Source: Kushneria aurantia DSM 21353 (GTDB lineage: Bacteria > Pseudomonadota > Gammaproteobacteria > Pseudomonadales > Halomonadaceae). Taken from it: DNA of 64,000 nucleotides. Position numbers and translations under genes: made by a program. The notes under the pieces are model-generated. The model was not told the origin of the DNA. It was given only the letters and a program-made list of their open reading frames with translations, and made no database searches. The DNA is taken from positions 1 through 64,000 of the forward strand of contig NZ_KB907878.1 in NCBI RefSeq assembly GCF_000382245.1, in the 5' to 3' direction. Below, piece by piece: positions 8,674-50,288 of the stretch (within the stretch, counting starts at the first letter, position 1; every line of letters starts with the position of its first letter).

Positions 8674-8758
8674 ACAACTGTTTCATAATTGTTTTTCATA
8701 AGTGCTTTGCATAAGTGCTTTTACGCTCTGCAGCAAGCGAAAATTTTGAAGGGAAGGC

Positions 8759-9813: not shown

Positions 9814-11562
9814 ATGAGTTCGGATACATCTGCGAGATCGAACAACAATCAGAAGCTTTCGGGCGTGATGCAACGCATCAGGTCAAATCCCCGCGTCCCG
9901 CTGATTATTGGCGCCTCCGCCGCGATCGCGATTGTGGTGGCGCTGCTGCTGTGGGCACGCTCTCCCGACTACCGCGTGCTGTTCTCCAATCTCAGCGACA
10001 GCGACGGCGGCACCATCATTGCGCAGCTGGATCAGATGCAGGTGCCCTACCGGCTTTCGGAGGGCGGCGGCGCTATCATGGTGCCCGCCGATCGGGTCGA
10101 GCAGACCCGCATGCAGCTGGCCCAGCAGGGGCTGCCCGACTCGGGCGGGGTAGGCTTCGAGCTGATGGACAGTCAGTCCTTCGGTATCAGTCAGTTTGCC
10201 GAGCAGATCAACTATCAGCGCGCACTGGAGGGCGAGCTGGTGCGCTCGATCGAATCGCTCGAGGCGGTGCGCAGCGCCCGGGTACACCTGGCACTACCCG
10301 AGGACTCGGTCTTTGTGCGCGAGCGCCGCGAGCCCTCGGCTTCAGTGGTGCTCAACCTTTACCGCAACCGCTCGGTCAGCGATGGCCAGGTGAGCGCGAT
10401 TACCCACCTGGTCGCCGCCAGCGTGACCAACATGCCGGTCGACGGCGTCACGGTGGTGGATCAGAACGGCGATCTGTTGACCAACAATGAAGATAACGGC
10501 CCCGGACAGCTCAGCAGCTCGCAGCTTGAATACACTCACCAGATCGAGGAAGCCTACAGTCGCCGTATCGAGCAGCTTCTGGGCACTATCGTGGGTGCCG
10601 ATAACGTGCGCGCTCAGGTCAATGCGCAACTGGACTTCTCGGTCAGTGAAGTCACCCGCGAGATGTATGAACCCAACAGCGGCGATAACCCGGCGGCGAT
10701 CCGCAGCGTCCAGCAAAGCGACAGCGAGCAGGTTGGCGCCAGCGGTATCGGCGGCGTCCCCGGCGCCCTGAGCAATCAGCCGCCGGGCGACGCTGTGGCG
10801 CCGATCGATAACCCTCAGCAGGCCGAGGTAGACGGTGAAGAGGGCCCGGTCGACGAAGAGGCCGTCGATGCGGCGGAACAGGTGGCCACCGCCAATCAGA
10901 TGGTGGTGCCGCGCTCCTCCAACAGCAGCAGTACGACCAACTACGAGGTCAACCGCGTCATTCGCCACACTCAGGAGGAGAGCGGCGTGCTGCAGCGTCT
11001 GTCGGTGGCGGTGGTGGTCGACTACGCACAGAACACCGACGCCGAGGGCAATATCGAGCAGGTGCCGCTCTCCGACGAGCAGATGGCCCAGCTCCGCAGT
11101 CTGATTCGCGAAAGCGTGGGGCTCTCCGATGCCCGCGGCGATTCGCTGGAAGTCGTCAATGCCGCCTTCAATCAAACCGTCGGCGAAGCAGCGCCGGAGA
11201 TCGCCTGGTATCGCGACCGCGATCTGATCGCACTGGCCACTACCCTGGCGCAGTATCTGCTGATCGCACTCATCGCCCTCTTCCTGTGGCGCAAGGTGGT
11301 CAAACCGCTGATCGAGCGCCAGCAGCCGGCCCCCCAGCAGGCCGCCCGTACTCAGGGCTCGCTGATGGCGAGCGTCGGTGACGACGATGATGATGACGGT
11401 GAAGAGGACGAAGATGATATCGCTCACGAAGTCCGCAAGAAGCAGAAACAGCATCAGCGTCATCAGCAGGAGACAATGCTGAAGTCGATTCGCGACCAGG
11501 CACAGAAGGACCCCCGTATGGTGGCCCTGATTCTCAGAGGCTGGATCAATGGCAAGGACTGA
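9814..11562 (+). CDS. fliF: Flagellar MS-ring protein FliF
   Basis: A 582-residue protein forming the MS ring in the inner membrane. There is a TM segment at ~28-48, ring-building motifs in the periplasmic region (for example Y-R-V-L-F-S-N-L and the [14 protein letters not shown] region), and a second TM at ~470-492. The cytoplasmic tail ends [13 protein letters not shown], the FliG-binding helix. Two acidic insertions stand out: near residues 330-355, and an Asp/Glu run around residues 525-537. First gene of the long export/switch operon; fliG starts inside its last 14 bases. Confidence 0.96.
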
Positions 11563-15189: not shown

Positions 15190-16836
15190 ATGCTGACACC
15201 GCTCAATATTATGACGCCTGCCCCCGGCGGCATCGAAGCCGGCAAGAGCTCCGGCAGTGACAAGAGTGATGCTGGCTTCGGCGCCCTCTTTCGCGGCATC
15301 AAGTCCGCCAGTGCGCTTGCCAATACCGCTGATAATCTGAAAGAAGCAGCCGGAGAAGCCACCAAAGACGCTGGCAACAAGGAAGGCAACCTGCTGAACC
15401 GTCTTGCCCTCGGTGGCAATACCGGTGGTGGTGATACCGGTACGATTCACGAACAGCTGTTGATGCTGGCCCGGGCAATCGGCCAAAAGGGTGAAGGCGC
15501 GAGCAGTGTTGAGCAGGATATCGAGGCGCTTCTCGGGGCAGCTGACCCAAAGGGTAAAGGCGCGAACAGCGTTGAACAGGATATCGAGGCGTTGCTCAGG
15601 AAAGTCGACCAAAAGGGCAAGGACGCGAGCACTGTTGAACAGGATATCGAGGCGCTGGTTAACGCCCTTGCACGGCCAGGCAAGGGTTCCAACGGCGACT
15701 CGGGAAGTCTCGAAGCGCTGGCGAGGGGCCGCTTCGGCGAGCAGCATACAGCGCGCAGAGGTGAGGATAGCGACGTCATGACGCGCCTTGACGAACGTCA
15801 TCAGCAACGCGATTCAGACTCGCCCAAAACCGCCTCACTTCTCTCCCTGGACGGTATTCGCTCTACTGTCGAGACCGGCGAACGACTATCACGCCAGTCC
15901 GACAATGCGGACGGCGATAGCCCCGAAGTTCAACAGGCCGAGGCCGGCCTGATGGCAGCGCCGATGCTGCTGCGTCAGGGCTCTGAAGGTCTTTCGACGA
16001 GCGATCGCAGCAGCCGCTCGATCAGCGCCACCGATGGCAGCCGCTCGATCAGCGCCACCGATGGCAGCCGTTCGAACAGCCAGCTCCCCGGACGCGAAGC
16101 CCTGCTGGCCGCGCTCAAGGGCGAGAGTAGCGGCGACGAGACGCAGTTCTCACGTTCAAGCGGCAACACCGAACGCAGCGGCAGCGATCGCGACAGCCAA
16201 ATGGTAGCAGCCATGATGGAGCGCACCACCAGCTCGCGCCAGGCGGCACTCGATCTACAGCAGAGCGGTACACGCAGCGCCGCGACCACACCGGATGCCG
16301 CGCTGAGCGCCCTGACGGCGCAGAGCGGCCAGGCCGGTAGTGGCATGATGGCCACTCAGGGGCAGGCGGTGACCACCGCCACTTTGCCGTCGATGGACAG
16401 CAACCAGTGGAGCAGCGCGCTGGAGCGCCAGACCATCAATCTGGGCCTGCGCGGCGGTGGAGAGGCGAAGCTTTCCATGAGCCCCGCCGAGCTGGGGCCG
16501 CTGTCAATCTCGCTGAAGATGGGTGAGCAGGGCGCGCAGCTGCATATCGGTTCACATAGCGCCCAGGTGCGCGCCGCCATTGAAGCCGCCCTGCCCCAGT
16601 TGCGTGATGCCTTCAGCGCCAGCGGCATTCAGCTGGGAGAAACCTCGGTCAGCGATCAGGGTGCCTTTGCGCAGCAGAACTTCCAGCAGCAGGGAGAAGG
16701 TAGCGGTAGCGGCCGTTCCGGATCAGCCGCCGCCGGTATGTCTGGCTCTGTCGTCGCCGGTGGCAACGATGATATTCAGACACTCGAAATTCCCGCCGGC
16801 CGCACCCTGAGCGGCGGTATCGACCTGTTTGCCTGA
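15190..16836 (+). CDS. fliK: Hook-length control protein FliK
   Basis: A 548-residue secreted molecular ruler that sets hook length and, through FlhB, switches export to filament proteins. The long N-terminal part is low-complexity and contains two sets of internal repeats (21 residues x3 and 9 residues x2). The C-terminal domain (~400-500) is the conserved FliK hook domain, with G-E-A-K-L-S-M-S-P-A-E-L-G-P-L-S-I-S-L and V-R-A-A-I-E-A-A-L-P-Q-L-R-D-A-F. AGGAAA precedes the ATG. A second FliK-like gene lies at 48885-50288. Confidence 0.94.
   Translation: MLTPLNIMTPAPGGIEAGKSSGSDKSDAGFGALFRGIKSASALANTADNLKEAAGEATKDAGNKEGNLLNRLALGGNTGGGDTGTIHEQLLMLARAIGQKGEGASSVEQDIEALLGAADPKGKGANSVEQDIEALLRKVDQKGKDASTVEQDIEALVNALARPGKGSNGDSGSLEALARGRFGEQHTARRGEDSDVMTRLDERHQQRDSDSPKTASLLSLDGIRSTVETGERLSRQSDNADGDSPEVQQAEAGLMAAPMLLRQGSEGLSTSDRSSRSISATDGSRSISATDGSRSNSQLPGREALLAALKGESSGDETQFSRSSGNTERSGSDRDSQMVAAMMERTTSSRQAALDLQQSGTRSAATTPDAALSALTAQSGQAGSGMMATQGQAVTTATLPSMDSNQWSSALERQTINLGLRGGGEAKLSMSPAELGPLSISLKMGEQGAQLHIGSHSAQVRAAIEAALPQLRDAFSASGIQLGETSVSDQGAFAQQNFQQQGEGSGSGRSGSAAAGMSGSVVAGGNDDIQTLEIPAGRTLSGGIDLFA
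15481..15669 (+). repeat. 63-bp tandem repeat x3 inside fliK
   Basis: Three units of 63 bases (15481-15543, 15544-15606, 15607-15669), each encoding 21 residues with a conserved SVEQDIEAL core (third copy TVEQDIEAL). The repeats keep the frame and lengthen the ruler region. Confidence 0.9.
16012..16080 (+). repeat. 27-bp direct repeat x2.5 inside fliK
   Basis: Two identical 27-base units (16012-16038 and 16039-16065) encode the nonapeptide SRSISATDG, followed by a partial third unit. Confidence 0.85.
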
Positions 16837-31674: not shown

Positions 31675-32094
31675 TCAGTTGCCGGATTGCATGGCACTGC
31701 GCAGACCCTGAATACGGCTGGTCATGAACTGCAGGTCGGCCTGATAGCGCATGGCGTTATCAGCGAAATTGACCCGCTCCATATCCATGTCAACGGTATT
31801 GCCATCGAGGCTCGGCTGGGAGGGAATGCGATAGAGCATATCGACACCACCGGCTGCCGACGCCGGCGCCTGGCCGTGAATGTGACGGCTGGACGTCGTG
31901 CTCAGGTTGAGCGGACCCTGTTGACCGCCCTGCTCGGTCATACGCTCGAGCTCCTGGCGAAAGTCGATATCCCTTGCCTTGTAGCCCGGCGTATCGGCGT
32001 TGGCGATGTTGGATGACAACATCTCCTGGCGCCTGGCACGCAGGCTCAGGGTGTTCTGAAAGTAATCCAGCGAGGCGCTGAGCCTGTCGATCAT
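31675..32094 (-). CDS. flgB: Proximal rod protein FlgB
   Basis: A 139-residue rod protein. The start at 32094 (MIDRLSASLDYFQNTL) is preferred over a longer frame because it has a GGAG site and matches the family N-terminus. The SSNIANADTPGYKARDIDF block is the FlgB signature. First gene of flgBCDE, divergent from flgA; promoters for both lie in 32095-32356. Confidence 0.96.
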   Translation of the reverse strand: MIDRLSASLDYFQNTLSLRARRQEMLSSNIANADTPGYKARDIDFRQELERMTEQGGQQGPLNLSTTSSRHIHGQAPASAAGGVDMLYRIPSQPSLDGNTVDMDMERVNFADNAMRYQADLQFMTSRIQGLRSAMQSGN

Positions 32095-32356
32095 GAGACT
32101 GCTCCGATTGGAGAGGACAAGGCCGGGCCCGTCTGGCCGCCAACGCACTGCGCTCCTTGTCCCCTGTCCCTGACATAACACTCGGGTGCCAAACGCCTGT
32201 CATGGCATTTGGCAGGTTGAGCACAGAATAAGGAGCAGCCACGCATTGCCATCGAAAGAAAAGGCCATTTTTGCGCGCCCATTTCACCGCCTGATCCTTG
32301 CCGCCCTGGCCTAGAATGCGCTTTATCGCATTACCCTCAGGCGGAGCTGTTGCGTC

Positions 32357-33082
32357 ATGGCGGCATCACTACTCCAAAAGCTCTCGGGCTCTCGTTACCA
32401 CGACCGATGCCGTGGCGCCGCATTCGTTGTGCTGCTGTCGGCCGCGCTGTTGCCCACCGCGGCGGCAGCCGACGAAGAGGCAATCCGCACTACTATCGAG
32501 GGTTTTCTGCTCGAACAGACCGCCAGCAGCGATGCCAGAGTCGAAATCGAAGTGACCTTGACCAGTGCGGCTCAGCGCCCCTGCCAAAGCCCGCAGGCTT
32601 TTCTGCCGGGCAGCGGCGGCTCAATCAGTGGCCGCACGACGGTCGGCATTCGCTGTCCGGGTGATGCGCCGGAAACGCGCTATTTTCAGGCCAATGTCCA
32701 CCTCTATGGGGAATATCCGGTTCCTGTACGCGATATCGCCCCCGGCGAAACCATTCAGGCCTCCGACCTGCGCTGGCAGGAAGGCGACTTCTCGCGCTTC
32801 AATGGTCGCCTGATCACCGACCCTGAGCTTCTGGTGGGCCAGGTGAGCCAGCGTCGTATCGGCACCGGCCAACCCCTTCAGCAGGGCATGGTCAAATCGC
32901 CACGGCTGGTCGACGGTGGGCAGGAGGTAGCGCTTCGCGTAACCGGCCAGGGCTTTCAGGTACGCAGCAGCGGCCGGGCGCTCAACAGCGCCGCGCGTGG
33001 CGAGAATGTCAGGGTCAGGACGCCCTCGGGCCGGATCGTCAACGGTACGGCCATCGACAGCGGCGTCGTCGAAGTGCGCTGA
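32357..33082 (+). CDS. flgA: P-ring assembly chaperone FlgA
   Basis: A 241-residue periplasmic protein with a signal peptide (cleavage near residue 37, AAA-AD). A C-terminal SAF-type domain includes D-I-A-P-G-E-T-I-Q-A-S-D-L-R-W and the ending N-V-R-V-R-T-P-S-G-R-I-V-N-G-T-A. FlgA helps FlgI form the P ring. GGAGC precedes the ATG. The repeat array begins 31 bases after the stop. Confidence 0.95.
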   Translation: MAASLLQKLSGSRYHDRCRGAAFVVLLSAALLPTAAAADEEAIRTTIEGFLLEQTASSDARVEIEVTLTSAAQRPCQSPQAFLPGSGGSISGRTTVGIRCPGDAPETRYFQANVHLYGEYPVPVRDIAPGETIQASDLRWQEGDFSRFNGRLITDPELLVGQVSQRRIGTGQPLQQGMVKSPRLVDGGQEVALRVTGQGFQVRSSGRALNSAARGENVRVRTPSGRIVNGTAIDSGVVEVR

Positions 33083-33113
33083 AAAGATTGCCGACACGCG
33101 ATGCGTGGCCCGC

Positions 33114-33378
33114 CATGGATAACGGGCTGGCGGGCATAAAAAATTGTCGGGAACGATTTTTAACGCCGAAGGCGGCCCGGAGGGTGCACGGCATGGATAG
33201 CGGGCTGGCGGGCATAAAAAATCGTCGGGAACGATTTTTAACGCCGAAGGCGGCCCGGAGGGTGCACGCCATGGATGGCGGGCTGGCGGGCATAAAAAAT
33301 CGTCGGGAACGATTTTTAACGCCGAAGGCGGCCCGGAGGGTGCACGCCATGGATGGCGGGCATAAAAAATCGTAGCAC
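33114..33378. repeat. 78-bp tandem repeat array (3 units plus partial fourth)
   Basis: Units start at 33114, 33192 and 33270 with an exact 78-base period; a truncated unit starts at 33348 and breaks off in the hairpin near 33371. Each full unit carries AAAAATCGT, the loop CGGGA, and ACGATTTTT: a 9-bp hairpin with A/T ends like a bidirectional terminator (one C-to-T change in unit 1 still pairs as G-U). A smaller CGCC-GAA-GGCG hairpin follows. Since 78 is a multiple of 3, one frame on each strand stays open and would give a 26-residue periodic peptide, but neither has the look of a real gene. It separates flgA from the flgM promoter. Confidence 0.92.
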
Positions 33379-33395
33379 TCTGTTATGATCGGGAC

Positions 33396-33422
33396 TAAAG
33401 AGTGCGCTCTATCTGTCGATAA
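33396..33422 (+). promoter_or_regulatory. Sigma-28 (FliA) promoter of flgMN
   Basis: TAAA at 33396-33399, a 15-base spacer, then GTCGATAA at 33415-33422 (7 of 8 to the FliA -10). The decamer TAAAGAGTGC at 33396-33405 recurs at 33420-33429, overlapping the -10. The flgM ATG is 71 bases downstream. Confidence 0.8.
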
Positions 33423-33493
33423 AGAGTGCACACAGGCAGCAAGCGTCACAGACTGCCTACCTGTTTCGGGAGAGCGTTGCGGAGATTACAGCC

Positions 33494-33778
33494 ATGAAGA
33501 TCGATTCGAATACGTCGCTGAGCCAGCTGCTGGGTCAGCAGGGAACACGTCCCGGTAGTGTTGCCAAAAACGACGCTGCTGCCGGTGCGCAGAGCGGAGG
33601 GGACGTATCCTCCCGCTGGATGCCCTCCAGTGCGCACAACACGGACGGTGATATCGATACCGCCCGGGTTGACGAGCTGCGTGAGGCGATTCGTGACGGA
33701 CAGTTTGAAATTCGTACCGACAAGATTGCCGATGGCCTGATCGAAAGCGCGCGAGAGCTGCTTGCCGATGGCCGATAA
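33494..33778 (+). CDS. flgM: Anti-sigma-28 factor FlgM
   Basis: A 94-residue, mostly disordered protein that holds sigma-28 inactive until exported through the finished hook-basal body. The C-terminal half has the FlgM domain: V-D-E-L-R-E-A-I-R-D-G-Q-F-E-I-R-T-D-K-I-A-D-G-L-I. GGAGAT precedes the ATG. Cotranscription with flgN from a sigma-28 promoter gives the classic feedback loop. Confidence 0.95.
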   Translation: MKIDSNTSLSQLLGQQGTRPGSVAKNDAAAGAQSGGDVSSRWMPSSAHNTDGDIDTARVDELREAIRDGQFEIRTDKIADGLIESARELLADGR

Positions 33779-33808
33779 GCGGCTTTTGTGACCAGGAGAG
33801 TGCCTGCC

Positions 33809-34264
33809 ATGAGTGACTACGCTGACATACTGGCTCAGATCAACGAAGCGCTGGAAAGCTTTGTTGCACTGCTTGGCCGCGAATCAGAGCTGCTTGACGA
33901 CCACCCGGTCGATATCGAGACGCTTTTGAATGTCTGCGAGCGAAAGGGCACTGCAACGATGCGCCTCGATCAGCTTGATCGCGCACGCCGCGCTGTGCTG
34001 GAGCAGCAGGGCTTTACCCCCGACCGCACCGGCAGCGATCTTTACGCCAGAGAGCACGATCTTGACGACTCATGGCAGCGCCTGATCGAACTTACCGAAA
34101 CGGCTTCGCAGCGCAACCGCCTCAACGGCTTTACCATCGAGCGTCGCCTCGATTTTCATAACCGCGCGCTCGAGTTCCTGCAAAACGCTGCCGGCATGAC
34201 CATGTATGGTCCCAACGGCCGCCAGCGCAACCTGCGAGGCAGCAGTACCTATCTCTGCGGCTGA
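33809..34264 (+). CDS. flgN: FlgK/FlgL chaperone FlgN
   Basis: A 151-residue helical protein, the export chaperone of the junction proteins FlgK and FlgL. The ATG at 33809 has a CAGGAGA site; an earlier in-frame GTG at 33788 does not. The C-terminal N-R-L-N-G-F-T-I-E-R-R-L-D-F-H-N-R-A-L-E-F-L and YGPNGRQ are typical of FlgN. It lies directly after flgM and before a terminator. Confidence 0.93.
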   Translation: MSDYADILAQINEALESFVALLGRESELLDDHPVDIETLLNVCERKGTATMRLDQLDRARRAVLEQQGFTPDRTGSDLYAREHDLDDSWQRLIELTETASQRNRLNGFTIERRLDFHNRALEFLQNAAGMTMYGPNGRQRNLRGSSTYLCG

Positions 34265-34272
34265 GACGCTCT

Positions 34273-34304
34273 GCGGCCGGGCTCTCCCCCGGCCGCTGCT
34301 TTTT
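34273..34304 (+). terminator. Rho-independent terminator after flgN
   Basis: A GCGGCCGGG stem with a CCCGGCCGC partner is followed by TGCTTTTT, 8 bases after the flgN stop. Confidence 0.85.
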
Positions 34305-34338
34305 GCAACGGCGGCTCGCCCTTCTTTACTACCCTTGC

Positions 34339-34785
34339 CTACTGCCCCGCTGTTTGCTGCCGATAGTTAACGATCAGCTGCAGACTGCCGCCGCGAATCG
34401 GCCTTTGCAGCATGCCGCGGCCGGGCACCATGAAACGAAATTCGATATTACTGTCGGCCGGCAGGCCTTCGAATTCATTGCTGGCACCACGCCGCATTTC
34501 GAGTTGATCGCAATAACCGGCCACGCAGAGCTCGATAATGGGCAGCTCACGGGACGGGGCCAGTTCGATGCGCCAGTAAAGCGTCGTGATCTCACCGTCG
34601 AGCTGCTCAAGCGTAGGGTGTTGCAGTCTGACCTGATAGACACGCTCGCGCTGAGCGAGATCGGGCGTGCTGTCGTCAATAACCACGGCGCCACCACCGG
34701 CGCCCTGAGCCGGGGCGCCAGCCGCCAGCGCTATCAGACCGACAGCAATCCATAACGGGAAATCGACGCCCGCTCGACGCCTCAC
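34339..34785 (-). CDS. flhE: Flagellar protein FlhE
   Basis: A 148-residue periplasmic protein with an N-terminal signal segment (WIAVGLIALAAGAPAQGA). Its C-terminal part follows the pattern of enteric FlhE: W-R-I-E-L, E-L-C-V-A-G-Y-C-D-Q-L-E with two Cys, F-R-F-M-V-P-G-R-G and a final L-I-V-N-Y-R. FlhE is thought to guard the export apparatus against proton leak. It overlaps the end of flhA by 4 bases, the same position as in enterics. Best supported by both pattern and context. Confidence 0.85.
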   Translation of the reverse strand: MRRRAGVDFPLWIAVGLIALAAGAPAQGAGGGAVVIDDSTPDLAQRERVYQVRLQHPTLEQLDGEITTLYWRIELAPSRELPIIELCVAGYCDQLEMRRGASNEFEGLPADSNIEFRFMVPGRGMLQRPIRGGSLQLIVNYRQQTAGQ

Positions 34786-48892: not shown

Positions 48893-50288
48893 CTGACGTC
48901 TCACTGCCGGAGCGTGGCGAGAAGTTCATCGAGGCTATGGGCAGGCCGGCAGCTTCCAGACGTGTCGCCAGACCGCCGCCCTGACGCCTGACCAGCGCCA
49001 GCGACGACTCATCGACCTCGCCGCTGACGTGAAGTGTCCCGCCCTGCAGGCTGATCTCGATATCCATGGCACCCAATTGCGGCATATCGAGATGTAGACG
49101 AGAACGCCAGATGCGCAGAGCGTCATCATCGACCTCACCGCCGGCACTCTCCTCCTCCAGCTCCCAGCGCATGGGCATATCAGGCATGAAAAAGCCCTCC
49201 CAGCGAAAAAGCGGCTGCGTCAGCATCTCCAGCTGATGGCGCAACAGTCCCTGCAGGGAGTCGTGCACTGGTTCGGCAGCGCTACGCTGCTGTGTGGCAG
49301 CGTTATGGGTATCGGCGCTCTCGCGTAACTGCATCAGAGCCTCGCCGCGAGCAGCAACCTGTGCCAGTTGAGCGGCACGCTCGGCAGTTGAACCATGGTT
49401 GGCGATAAGCGGCGAAAGCTGCGCCGTCACCGGCGACTGAGGAATAGCTGCCGTTTGGCCGCCGGGAAGCTGCGTCGATGGCAGAACAGTGCCCGATTGT
49501 GCCATCTGCCCCATAAGAAGATGAGATGAGGACATCGGAATACCGGGCTGCGCCATCTGGCCGAAAGCGGTGGCAGCCGATGGCAGGGGTGATGCAAACC
49601 CCGTCGCGGGCAGCGCAGCGGTTGCCGCCGGCCGACCTGCCGCCGACTGAGCTGTCCCGGACTGACCTGCCGCCGACTGAGCTGCCCCGGACTGACCTGC
49701 TGTCGACTGGCCTGACGCCGGCATGGCGACCAGCCGCGCCAGCTTGCCCTGGGGTTCGCGCAGCAGCTCTCCGACATCGTAATTGCCCTTGAGCCACTGG
49801 GAGAGGTGAGACTCATAGAAAAGACCGCTGTGGCGCACCTGTCCGGAAAGCGCCGTGGAGAGTCGCGAGGCCGTAGGCTCGGAACGCGTTAGCGCCTGGC
49901 TGGACTTGACCGCCTGGGTGTCGACGGGGAATTTTTCCAGGATACGGGCAATGGTGCGCGCCTCGGCGCTAAGGTGGGTTCTGGATGAGCTGTTCTGCGT
50001 CTGTCCGGCGTTTTCCGCAGCGCCGCTCGATACGTGCCCCTGGGTACCGCGCAGCTGTGGGTTGCGCGCCACCTCTCCCTGGTTGGTACGAGGGCTGTTG
50101 CTGGAGATGCCGGCACGCTGATCAATACGATCATCCGGCGTATCCGAGGTCGGATCGCGCAGAGAGGTAATACGCGAAACGCCGCCAAGCGGCTGTTCGG
50201 CCTGCCTGGCGGCAACGCGCTCGACGTCACCCCGGCGCCCCAGCACATTGCTTATCAGGGTATCGACAAGCGGCGTGATAATACTCAA
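48885..50288 (-). CDS. FliK-like flagellar hook-length control domain protein
   Basis: A 467-residue protein. The first ~350 residues are low-complexity (Ser, Ala, Gln, Gly) with a 10-residue tandem repeat. The last ~110 residues form a FliK-type C-terminal domain: W-R-S-R-L-H-L-D-M-P-Q-L-G-A-M-D-I-E-I-S-L-Q-G-G-T-L-H-V-S. It overlaps fliT by 4 bases and the FlhB-like gene by 8, so these are translationally coupled. It differs from the main FliK (15190-16836). A role in export control is inferred. Confidence 0.8.
   Translation of the reverse strand: MSIITPLVDTLISNVLGRRGDVERVAARQAEQPLGGVSRITSLRDPTSDTPDDRIDQRAGISSNSPRTNQGEVARNPQLRGTQGHVSSGAAENAGQTQNSSSRTHLSAEARTIARILEKFPVDTQAVKSSQALTRSEPTASRLSTALSGQVRHSGLFYESHLSQWLKGNYDVGELLREPQGKLARLVAMPASGQSTAGQSGAAQSAAGQSGTAQSAAGRPAATAALPATGFASPLPSAATAFGQMAQPGIPMSSSHLLMGQMAQSGTVLPSTQLPGGQTAAIPQSPVTAQLSPLIANHGSTAERAAQLAQVAARGEALMQLRESADTHNAATQQRSAAEPVHDSLQGLLRHQLEMLTQPLFRWEGFFMPDMPMRWELEEESAGGEVDDDALRIWRSRLHLDMPQLGAMDIEISLQGGTLHVSGEVDESSLALVRRQGGGLATRLEAAGLPIASMNFSPRSGSETSDA
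49634..49710 (-). repeat. 30-bp tandem repeat in the FliK-like gene
   Basis: Two 30-base units (49634-49663, 49664-49693), one base different, plus a partial third. They encode a 10-residue period rich in Gln, Ser, Ala and Gly within the linker. Confidence 0.85.

What the first reader, a model, noticed from the sequence alone, without database searches (positions are those of the whole stretch)
33114..33378. 78-bp tandem repeat array, open on both strands, with terminator-like hairpins, just before the flgM promoter
Exact 78-base period over three units and a partial fourth. Each unit carries a 9-bp A/T-ended hairpin that could act as terminator on both strands. The period being a multiple of 3 leaves a long frame open on each strand, encoding periodic 26-residue peptides. 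The array ends 17 bases before the -35 of the sigma-28 promoter of flgM, so it may insulate flgM from flgA, or be a dispersed repeat family.
Basis: seen in the sequence. Interest (0 to 1): 0.72.

Follow-up and report, generated by a model that had tools for sequence, protein, structure and literature searches.

The report
Tandem copies of a mobile four-hairpin repeat
The repeat beside flgM is a local cluster of a small DNA element that folds into four hairpins and has copied itself into many bacterial genomes, often right behind transcription stop signals; it looks like a mobile element of unknown machinery rather than a switch for flgM.

Summary
The array is real: three units at a 78-bp period plus two partial ones, between flgA and a sigma-28-like promoter of flgM. 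It is not specific to flgM. Each unit is a copy of a 70-80-nt element of four hairpins, with 65 model matches in this genome and none in nine congeners. Stems covary strongly (22 of 24 pairs change on both sides in 24 distinct units of relatives). A model found it in 131 of 369 genomes of the class; Rfam 15 has no match for the window stretch. In this genome 12 of 30 sites lie directly 3' of an intrinsic terminator (controls 0 of 30; random 26 of 2988), and some of these terminators exist without the unit in congeners. Elsewhere the unit sits in group II introns, two hsdS genes and other repeats; empty copies of three host repeats show insertion at one point, with no target duplication seen. 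Best reading: a non-autonomous mobile element whose enzyme is unidentified, possibly handled as folded single-stranded DNA, inserted beside flgM and then duplicated in place. Peptide and terminator/insulator readings are weak: only 4 of 13 arrays have spacings all divisible by 3, and no terminator is found in the array.

The parts
33105..33138 (+). partial unit: hairpin C only (5' part of the unit missing)
   Evidence: read; resembles the C hairpin of the following units
33139..33216 (+). unit 1 (four hairpins; hairpin C with an 8-base internal duplication)
   Evidence: model R1, 70.4 bits
33217..33294 (+). unit 2 (same duplication in hairpin C)
   Evidence: model R1, 85.3 bits on 33217-33286
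33295..33364 (+). unit 3, the cleanest copy: hairpin A 33295-33317, B 33320-33330, small hairpin 33332-33340, C 33341-33362
   Evidence: model R1, 93.2 bits; predicted fold
33365..33373 (+). partial unit: first 9 bases of hairpin A
   Evidence: read
33396..33422 (+). sigma-28-like promoter of flgM, kept in congeners without the array
   Evidence: consensus recalled
32357..33082 (+). flgA, upstream neighbour
   Evidence: Pfam ChapFlgA E 7.6e-31
33494..33778 (+). flgM, downstream neighbour
   Evidence: Pfam FlgM E 1.8e-9

Best explanation
The array is a local tandem cluster of a dispersed, non-autonomous mobile element of 70-80 nt with a fixed four-hairpin fold. Shown: the same fold across many genera; presence/absence differences between relatives; units next to terminators that exist without them in congeners; insertion at single points into larger repeats, with no target-site duplication seen where the empty copy was read. 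Inferred: (1) it is moved in trans by an enzyme not identified here; (2) the folded single DNA strand is what is recognised, since the stems are kept as palindromes without a clear RNA-type wobble bias and the small hairpin, and about half of the B hairpins, have C-GNA-G triloops (recalled as very stable in DNA); (3) after one insertion, copies multiply in place by slippage or unequal recombination, because units inside an array are more alike than units of different arrays. Beside flgM it is an insertion of about 250 bp upstream of the sigma-28 promoter, with at most a minor effect on flgM.
For: Own genome: 65 matches at E<=0.001, 0 in 9 of 9 congeners (stricter filters). Covariation: 17 own units, 11 of 26 pairs changed on both sides; 24 distinct units of relatives, 22 of 24 pairs, 131 cells, score 0.632 against 0.180 shuffled. 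Spread: 131 of 369 genomes of the class, 108 of 271 genera; 51 of 299 of the phylum sample. Terminator side: 12 of 30 own sites against 0 of 30 at each of three control places and 26 of 2988 random positions; in named genomes 13 of 36 poly-T-type units against 1 of 36 of the other type. Orthologous terminators without the unit in congeners: L019 3 of 3 read, L020 3 of 3, L084 2 of 3, L091 2 of 2, by eye. Host repeats: 34 (G179) and 40 (G303) listed uninterrupted matches, 10 empty copies read. Inside or overlapping Rfam group II intron matches; two HsdS frames. Identity within arrays median 0.95, between arrays 0.75. DNA fold z -4.4 to -5.5 in 3 of 3 units, both strands.
Against: No enzyme found: PF01797 absent from this genome and from 29 of 131 element-bearing genomes; reverse transcriptase present here (3) but absent from G012, G041, G044 and G046, which carry units. 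The flgM site has no terminator at its C side, and 18 of 30 own sites fail the terminator rule; at L094, L096 and L014 the congeners show no clear orthologous terminator. The test that the two flanks pair (insertion in a hairpin loop) was weak: 5 of 33 against 5.8% in swapped controls. Wobble counts are mixed: in helices A, B and small, GT:AC 2:6 (A3), 24:12 (A5), 21:11 (A4), so RNA-level folding is not excluded. Some units of different arrays are identical (maximum 1.00). The filled copy differs from the empty one by one base in G303 and from three of four empty copies in G179. Nearly absent from plasmids and phages as far as tried.
Confidence: 0.6

Rival explanations
1. A functional RNA: loops A and C carry GGA, the motif bound by CsrA/RsmA, so tandem arrays would act as a CsrA sponge or as CsrA-controlled leaders.
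For: In the 24 distinct units of relatives GGA is in loop A of 23 and in loop C of 20 (they were found with a model built from own units, so not wholly independent). One csrA gene in this genome. Stems covary. The CsrA consensus is recalled.
Against: At the terminator-adjacent sites the read-through RNA would be the complementary strand, whose loops read TCC. No consistent G-U bias. Units also sit in hsdS frames and group II introns.
Confidence: 0.12
2. A terminator/insulator array: hairpin A ends transcription on both strands and separates flgA from flgM.
For: In the window hairpin A ends in T5-6 on both strands; other sites are often next to terminators.
Against: Hairpin A has at most two G-C pairs in the window units; the scan finds 0 terminators in 32800-33800. 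Array absent in congeners that keep the promoter. In the CAAAA type of other lineages the tract is cut to four T followed by G.
Confidence: 0.1
3. A REP-like element moved by a RAYT/Y1 enzyme.
For: Small, palindromic, dispersed; genomes with the element carry Y1 genes more often (102 of 131 against 138 of 238, no correction for kinship). No target duplication fits HUH/Y1 enzymes (recalled). 18 of 48 CAAAA-type units end in GTA, which resembles part of a GTAG tag.
Against: GTAG near the unit end in only 4 of 90 contexts and CGTC in 0; four hairpins rather than one; head-to-tail tandems, which PMC3733652 calls absent or under-represented for GTAG repeats (section read); no Y1 gene in this genome.
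Confidence: 0.15
4. A plain tandem repeat from replication slippage without mobility, or an assembly artefact.
For: Units within arrays are nearly identical; some arrays end at contig ends or in N.
Against: About 30 sites in this genome and matches in 131 of 369 genomes of the class; sites without the unit in relatives and empty host repeats.
Confidence: 0.03

Closest known systems
GTAG- and CGTC-tagged REP repeats (PMC3733652: passages, and the section on GTAG families)
   Same: short, palindromic, dispersed, clustered at times, stems with complementary changes; the CGTC type has no known dedicated transposase
   Different: 70-80 nt with four hairpins instead of 20-40 bp with one; tag not conserved; head-to-tail tandems
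MITEs, RUP and BOX repeats (recalled; PMC3049150 seen in a search listing only)
   Same: small non-autonomous insertions, multi-copy
   Different: the two ends belong to separate hairpins, not to a pair of terminal inverted repeats; no target duplication seen at the three host repeats read
Group II class C introns, which insert after terminators (recalled)
   Same: insertion directly 3' of terminator hairpins, no target duplication
   Different: Rfam finds no intron in the window stretch; it finds introns around the unit in Ectothiorhodospira and Thiorhodospira
CsrB/RsmY-type sRNAs (recalled)
   Same: several hairpins with GGA loops
   Different: dispersed, GGA strand opposite to the read-through strand at terminator sites, no Rfam match in the window stretch

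Membership tests
REP (GTAG/CGTC) | unpaired GTAG or CGTC tag at one end, conserved in most members | tested here: not met
   90 distinct flank contexts: GTAG near the 3' end in 4, CGTC in 0, neither near the 5' end; GTA ends 18 of 48 CAAAA-type units
REP (GTAG/CGTC) | single hairpin of 20-40 bp | tested here: not met
   four hairpins in 70-80 nt
REP (GTAG/CGTC) | RAYT/Y1 transposase in the genome (GTAG type) | tested here: not met
   PF01797 0 matches in this genome; the control rings in 5 of 14
MITE | target-site duplication | tested here: not met
   none seen at three host repeats (10 empty copies read); T-tract sites are ambiguous
MITE | terminal inverted repeats | tested here: not met
   the ends pair within hairpins A and C, not with each other, in the predicted folds
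Intrinsic terminator | G-C-rich stem followed by a T tract | tested here: not met
   0 in 32800-33800 by the scan rule
Known structured RNA | match to an Rfam 15 family | tested here: not met
   0 matches up to E 1 in 32000-34500; in 18 of the 52 named loci only group II intron pieces and tRNAs
CsrB-like sponge | transcription of the GGA strand and CsrA binding | not testable with these tools
   no expression or binding data
Coding repeat (peptide) | unit length a multiple of 3 across arrays | tested here: not met
   4 of 13 arrays

The most novel reading that the evidence does not exclude
A phylum-wide family of mobile elements made only of a four-hairpin DNA structure (CNGGA loop, GNA triloops, ANGGA loop), not related to REP/RAYT, inserted at A|A steps without target duplication by an unknown, widespread single-strand-handling enzyme, and preferring structured landing sites such as terminators, group II introns and other repeats.
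Probability: 0.35. Interest if true: 0.82.

Novelty: new variant of a known kind. Interest (0 to 1): 0.62.

Why it matters
If right, a common small mobile element of gammaproteobacteria and some other proteobacteria has no entry in the RNA family library searched, and its landing sites (behind terminators, inside group II introns, in frame in hsdS) make the question of what moves such elements directly testable. The covariance model can also mask or annotate these repeats, which otherwise look like ORFs, terminators or assembly breaks.

Tried and rejected
Peptide reading: rejected on spacings and lack of domains. Terminator array: no terminator by rule. RAYT: no Y1 gene here; the class-wide association is weak and uncorrected for kinship. 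Reverse transcriptase (target-primed insertion at T tracts): three RVT_1 genes here, one with a group II maturase domain, but four unit-bearing genomes of the ten searched have none; kept only as a possibility. General insertion in hairpin loops: flank-pairing test weak. RNA against DNA by wobble bias: the first tally (GT 55, AC 40) looked DNA-like, but split by helix it is mixed, and the tRNA comparison (GT 38, AC 0 in 28 tRNAs) is unfair because ARAGORN itself demands pairing. Loops in A5 are partly fixed by the pattern; in A3 they were only favoured by model R1. Plasmids, phages, E. coli by BLAST with one CAAAA-type unit: 1 of 72,556 records, 0 of 50,697, 0 of 20,395; with one poly-T-type unit 0 plasmids; diverged copies would be missed. 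Literature: in 10 searches no listing I saw names this repeat; of two papers I read passages, of one of them a section. The library holds open-licence papers only, and a survey of candidate structured RNAs that I asked for is not held.

Full report
Observation. The array is as described: TRF gives 33111-33361, period 78, 3.2 copies, 97% matches. It lies between flgA and flgM, both confirmed by Pfam, with a sigma-28-like promoter at 33396-33422 (consensus recalled). Frames are open on both strands.

A dispersed family. The unit has 34 BLAST matches at E<=1 in its own genome, the weakest few not units. Of 32 units found in the first loci, 21 were aligned and 17 kept; the four dropped were two window units with the duplicated C hairpin and two with an atypical B or small hairpin. 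The 17 show four hairpins: A (mostly AAAAATCGT-CRGGA-ACGATTTTT), B (variable), a small CCC-GNA-GGG hairpin, and C (GCC-ANGGAT-GGC core in most). Pairs are kept by changes on both sides (11 of 26; 0 of 500 shuffles reach it). A covariance model (R1) finds 65 matches at E<=0.001 in the genome, which I merged into about 30 sites.

Relatives. With R1, 13 of 58 genomes (own included) have matches, but none of the nine other genomes of the genus (stricter filters, so weak copies may be missed). The 24 distinct units fetched from relatives have changes on both sides in 22 of 24 pairs, 131 such cells, 92.6% of cells paired. GGA is kept in 23 A loops and 20 C loops, and the small loop is GNA in 21 of 24; R1 favours such loops, so this is not fully independent. 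A pattern scan gave 52 stretches in named genomes, among them Pseudomonas, Stutzerimonas, Salinicola, Ectothiorhodospira, Thiorhodospira, Brenneria, Rheinheimera and Alloalcanivorax. A second model (R2; 114 rows, 101 distinct) matches 131 of 369 genomes drawn from the class at E<=1e-8; at most 13 candidates per genome were scored, so copy numbers are cut there. In a phylum sample it matches 51 of 299; 32 of the 51 are outside the class, 25 of these in one family, with lower scores. One of them (G480) was read and is a true copy. Rfam 15 has no match for the window stretch.

Where it sits. Read on the strand where C comes first, own arrays often begin directly after an intrinsic terminator. By a fixed rule this holds for 12 of 30 sites, against 0 of 30 at each of three control places and 26 of 2988 random positions in the same loci; two sites (L011, L017) had little or no sequence on the A side and count as 'no' in the control there. 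Two further sites (L013, L020) show by eye a terminator with a partial or decayed unit between and were not counted. In named genomes the poly-T type shows it in 13 of 36 units (tandem neighbours included), the CAAAA type in 1 of 36. Congeners have orthologous terminators without the unit at L019 (3 of 3 read), L020 (3 of 3), L084 (2 of 3) and L091 (2 of 2), judged by eye; at L096, L094 and L014 nothing clear.

Other hosts. In Ectothiorhodospira and Thiorhodospira (L109, L118, L123, L135, L148) the unit lies within, or in L118 over the edge of, Rfam group II intron matches. Of nine spanning frames tested, chosen from 60 listed, two are HsdS proteins with the unit near the N-terminus, one a helicase, one a Mutator transposase, five without a match. 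In three genomes with near-identical copies the unit is nested in larger repeats, roughly 325, 200 and 200 bp of shared sequence, different in each. Ten were read: insertion is at one point, TCCTGA|AATCG in G179 (one of the four read; the other three have G for one A), GCCTCCA|AACC in G480 (two read), and CTGGGA|GAGGG in G303 (four read) with one base changed. No target duplication is seen. Across 90 distinct flank contexts the base before the unit is A in 83% (CAAAA type) and 88% (poly-T type), the base after it A in 65% and 95%; some of the 90 are tandem neighbours, and in the poly-T type the A tract is part of the unit's own pattern.

The flgM site. Nine of nine congeners keep the promoter. 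In eight the interval from the flgA stop to it is 58-63 bp, here 313 bp; in the ninth (G007) the interval was not measured, but no repeat core lies in the fetched stretch. So the array is an insertion upstream of a conserved promoter. Unlike many other sites it has no terminator at its C side. Units within arrays are more alike (median 0.95 of 58 pairs) than between arrays (0.75 of 1538 pairs, maximum 1.00), so the three units most likely arose in place. Neighbour spacings range from 71 to 78; only 4 of 13 arrays have spacings all divisible by 3, so the open frames are incidental.

DNA or RNA. Three of three units fold better than shuffles as DNA on both strands (z -4.4 to -5.5), and less strikingly as RNA (z -1.7 to -4.1). 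Wobble counts do not decide. C-GNA-G triloops, recalled as very stable in DNA, are found in 92 of 101 small hairpins (partly fixed by the pattern) and 46 of 101 B hairpins. I lean to DNA, not firmly.

Mechanism. No enzyme was found. Y1 transposases are absent here and in 29 of 131 element-bearing genomes of the class sample; reverse transcriptases are absent in four unit-bearing genomes of ten searched. Absence in a draft, or today, does not exclude a past or foreign enzyme. The element is nearly absent from plasmid records by the two units tried, and absent from phage and E. coli records by one.

Novelty. Ten paper searches gave no listing that names it; they cover open-licence papers only. 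It works like REP elements and other small non-autonomous insertions. Membership in REP, MITE, terminator or Rfam families was tested and defining features were not met. I therefore call it a new variant of a known kind.

Noticed in passing
L109, L118, L123, L135, L148: Group II introns of Ectothiorhodospira and Thiorhodospira carry the unit inside, or in L118 overlapping, their D1-D4 Rfam match.
   Followed up: partly
L065, L066 (and perhaps L059): The unit sits in frame near the N-terminus of HsdS specificity proteins; L059 has four units within 700 bp in a stretch that reads by eye like an hsdS tail, but the frame tested gave no Pfam match.
   Followed up: partly
L125, L130, L139, L145, L149: Units lie beside what look by eye like tRNA 3' fragments and terminators (tRNAs found in L125, L139 and L147; L130 and L145 were not, or not all, scanned).
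   Followed up: no
L219-L226 (G303), L212-L218 (G179), L227-L231 (G480): Large families of other dispersed repeats serve as hosts of the unit; the host repeats themselves were not identified.
   Followed up: partly
L021 about 2079-2279, L093 about 2049-2232, ends of contigs C23, C31, C40: Arrays coincide with runs of N or lie near contig ends, and C23 and C31 share the same flank, so array copy numbers in this draft genome are uncertain.
   Followed up: no
window 8681-8722, 11376-11417, 15483-15657, 16010-16080, 49623-49722: Other tandem repeats reported by TRF, not examined.
   Followed up: no
L097, L101 (own genome): Reverse transcriptases, L097 with a group II maturase domain and followed by a frame that looks by eye like an integrase.
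   Followed up: partly
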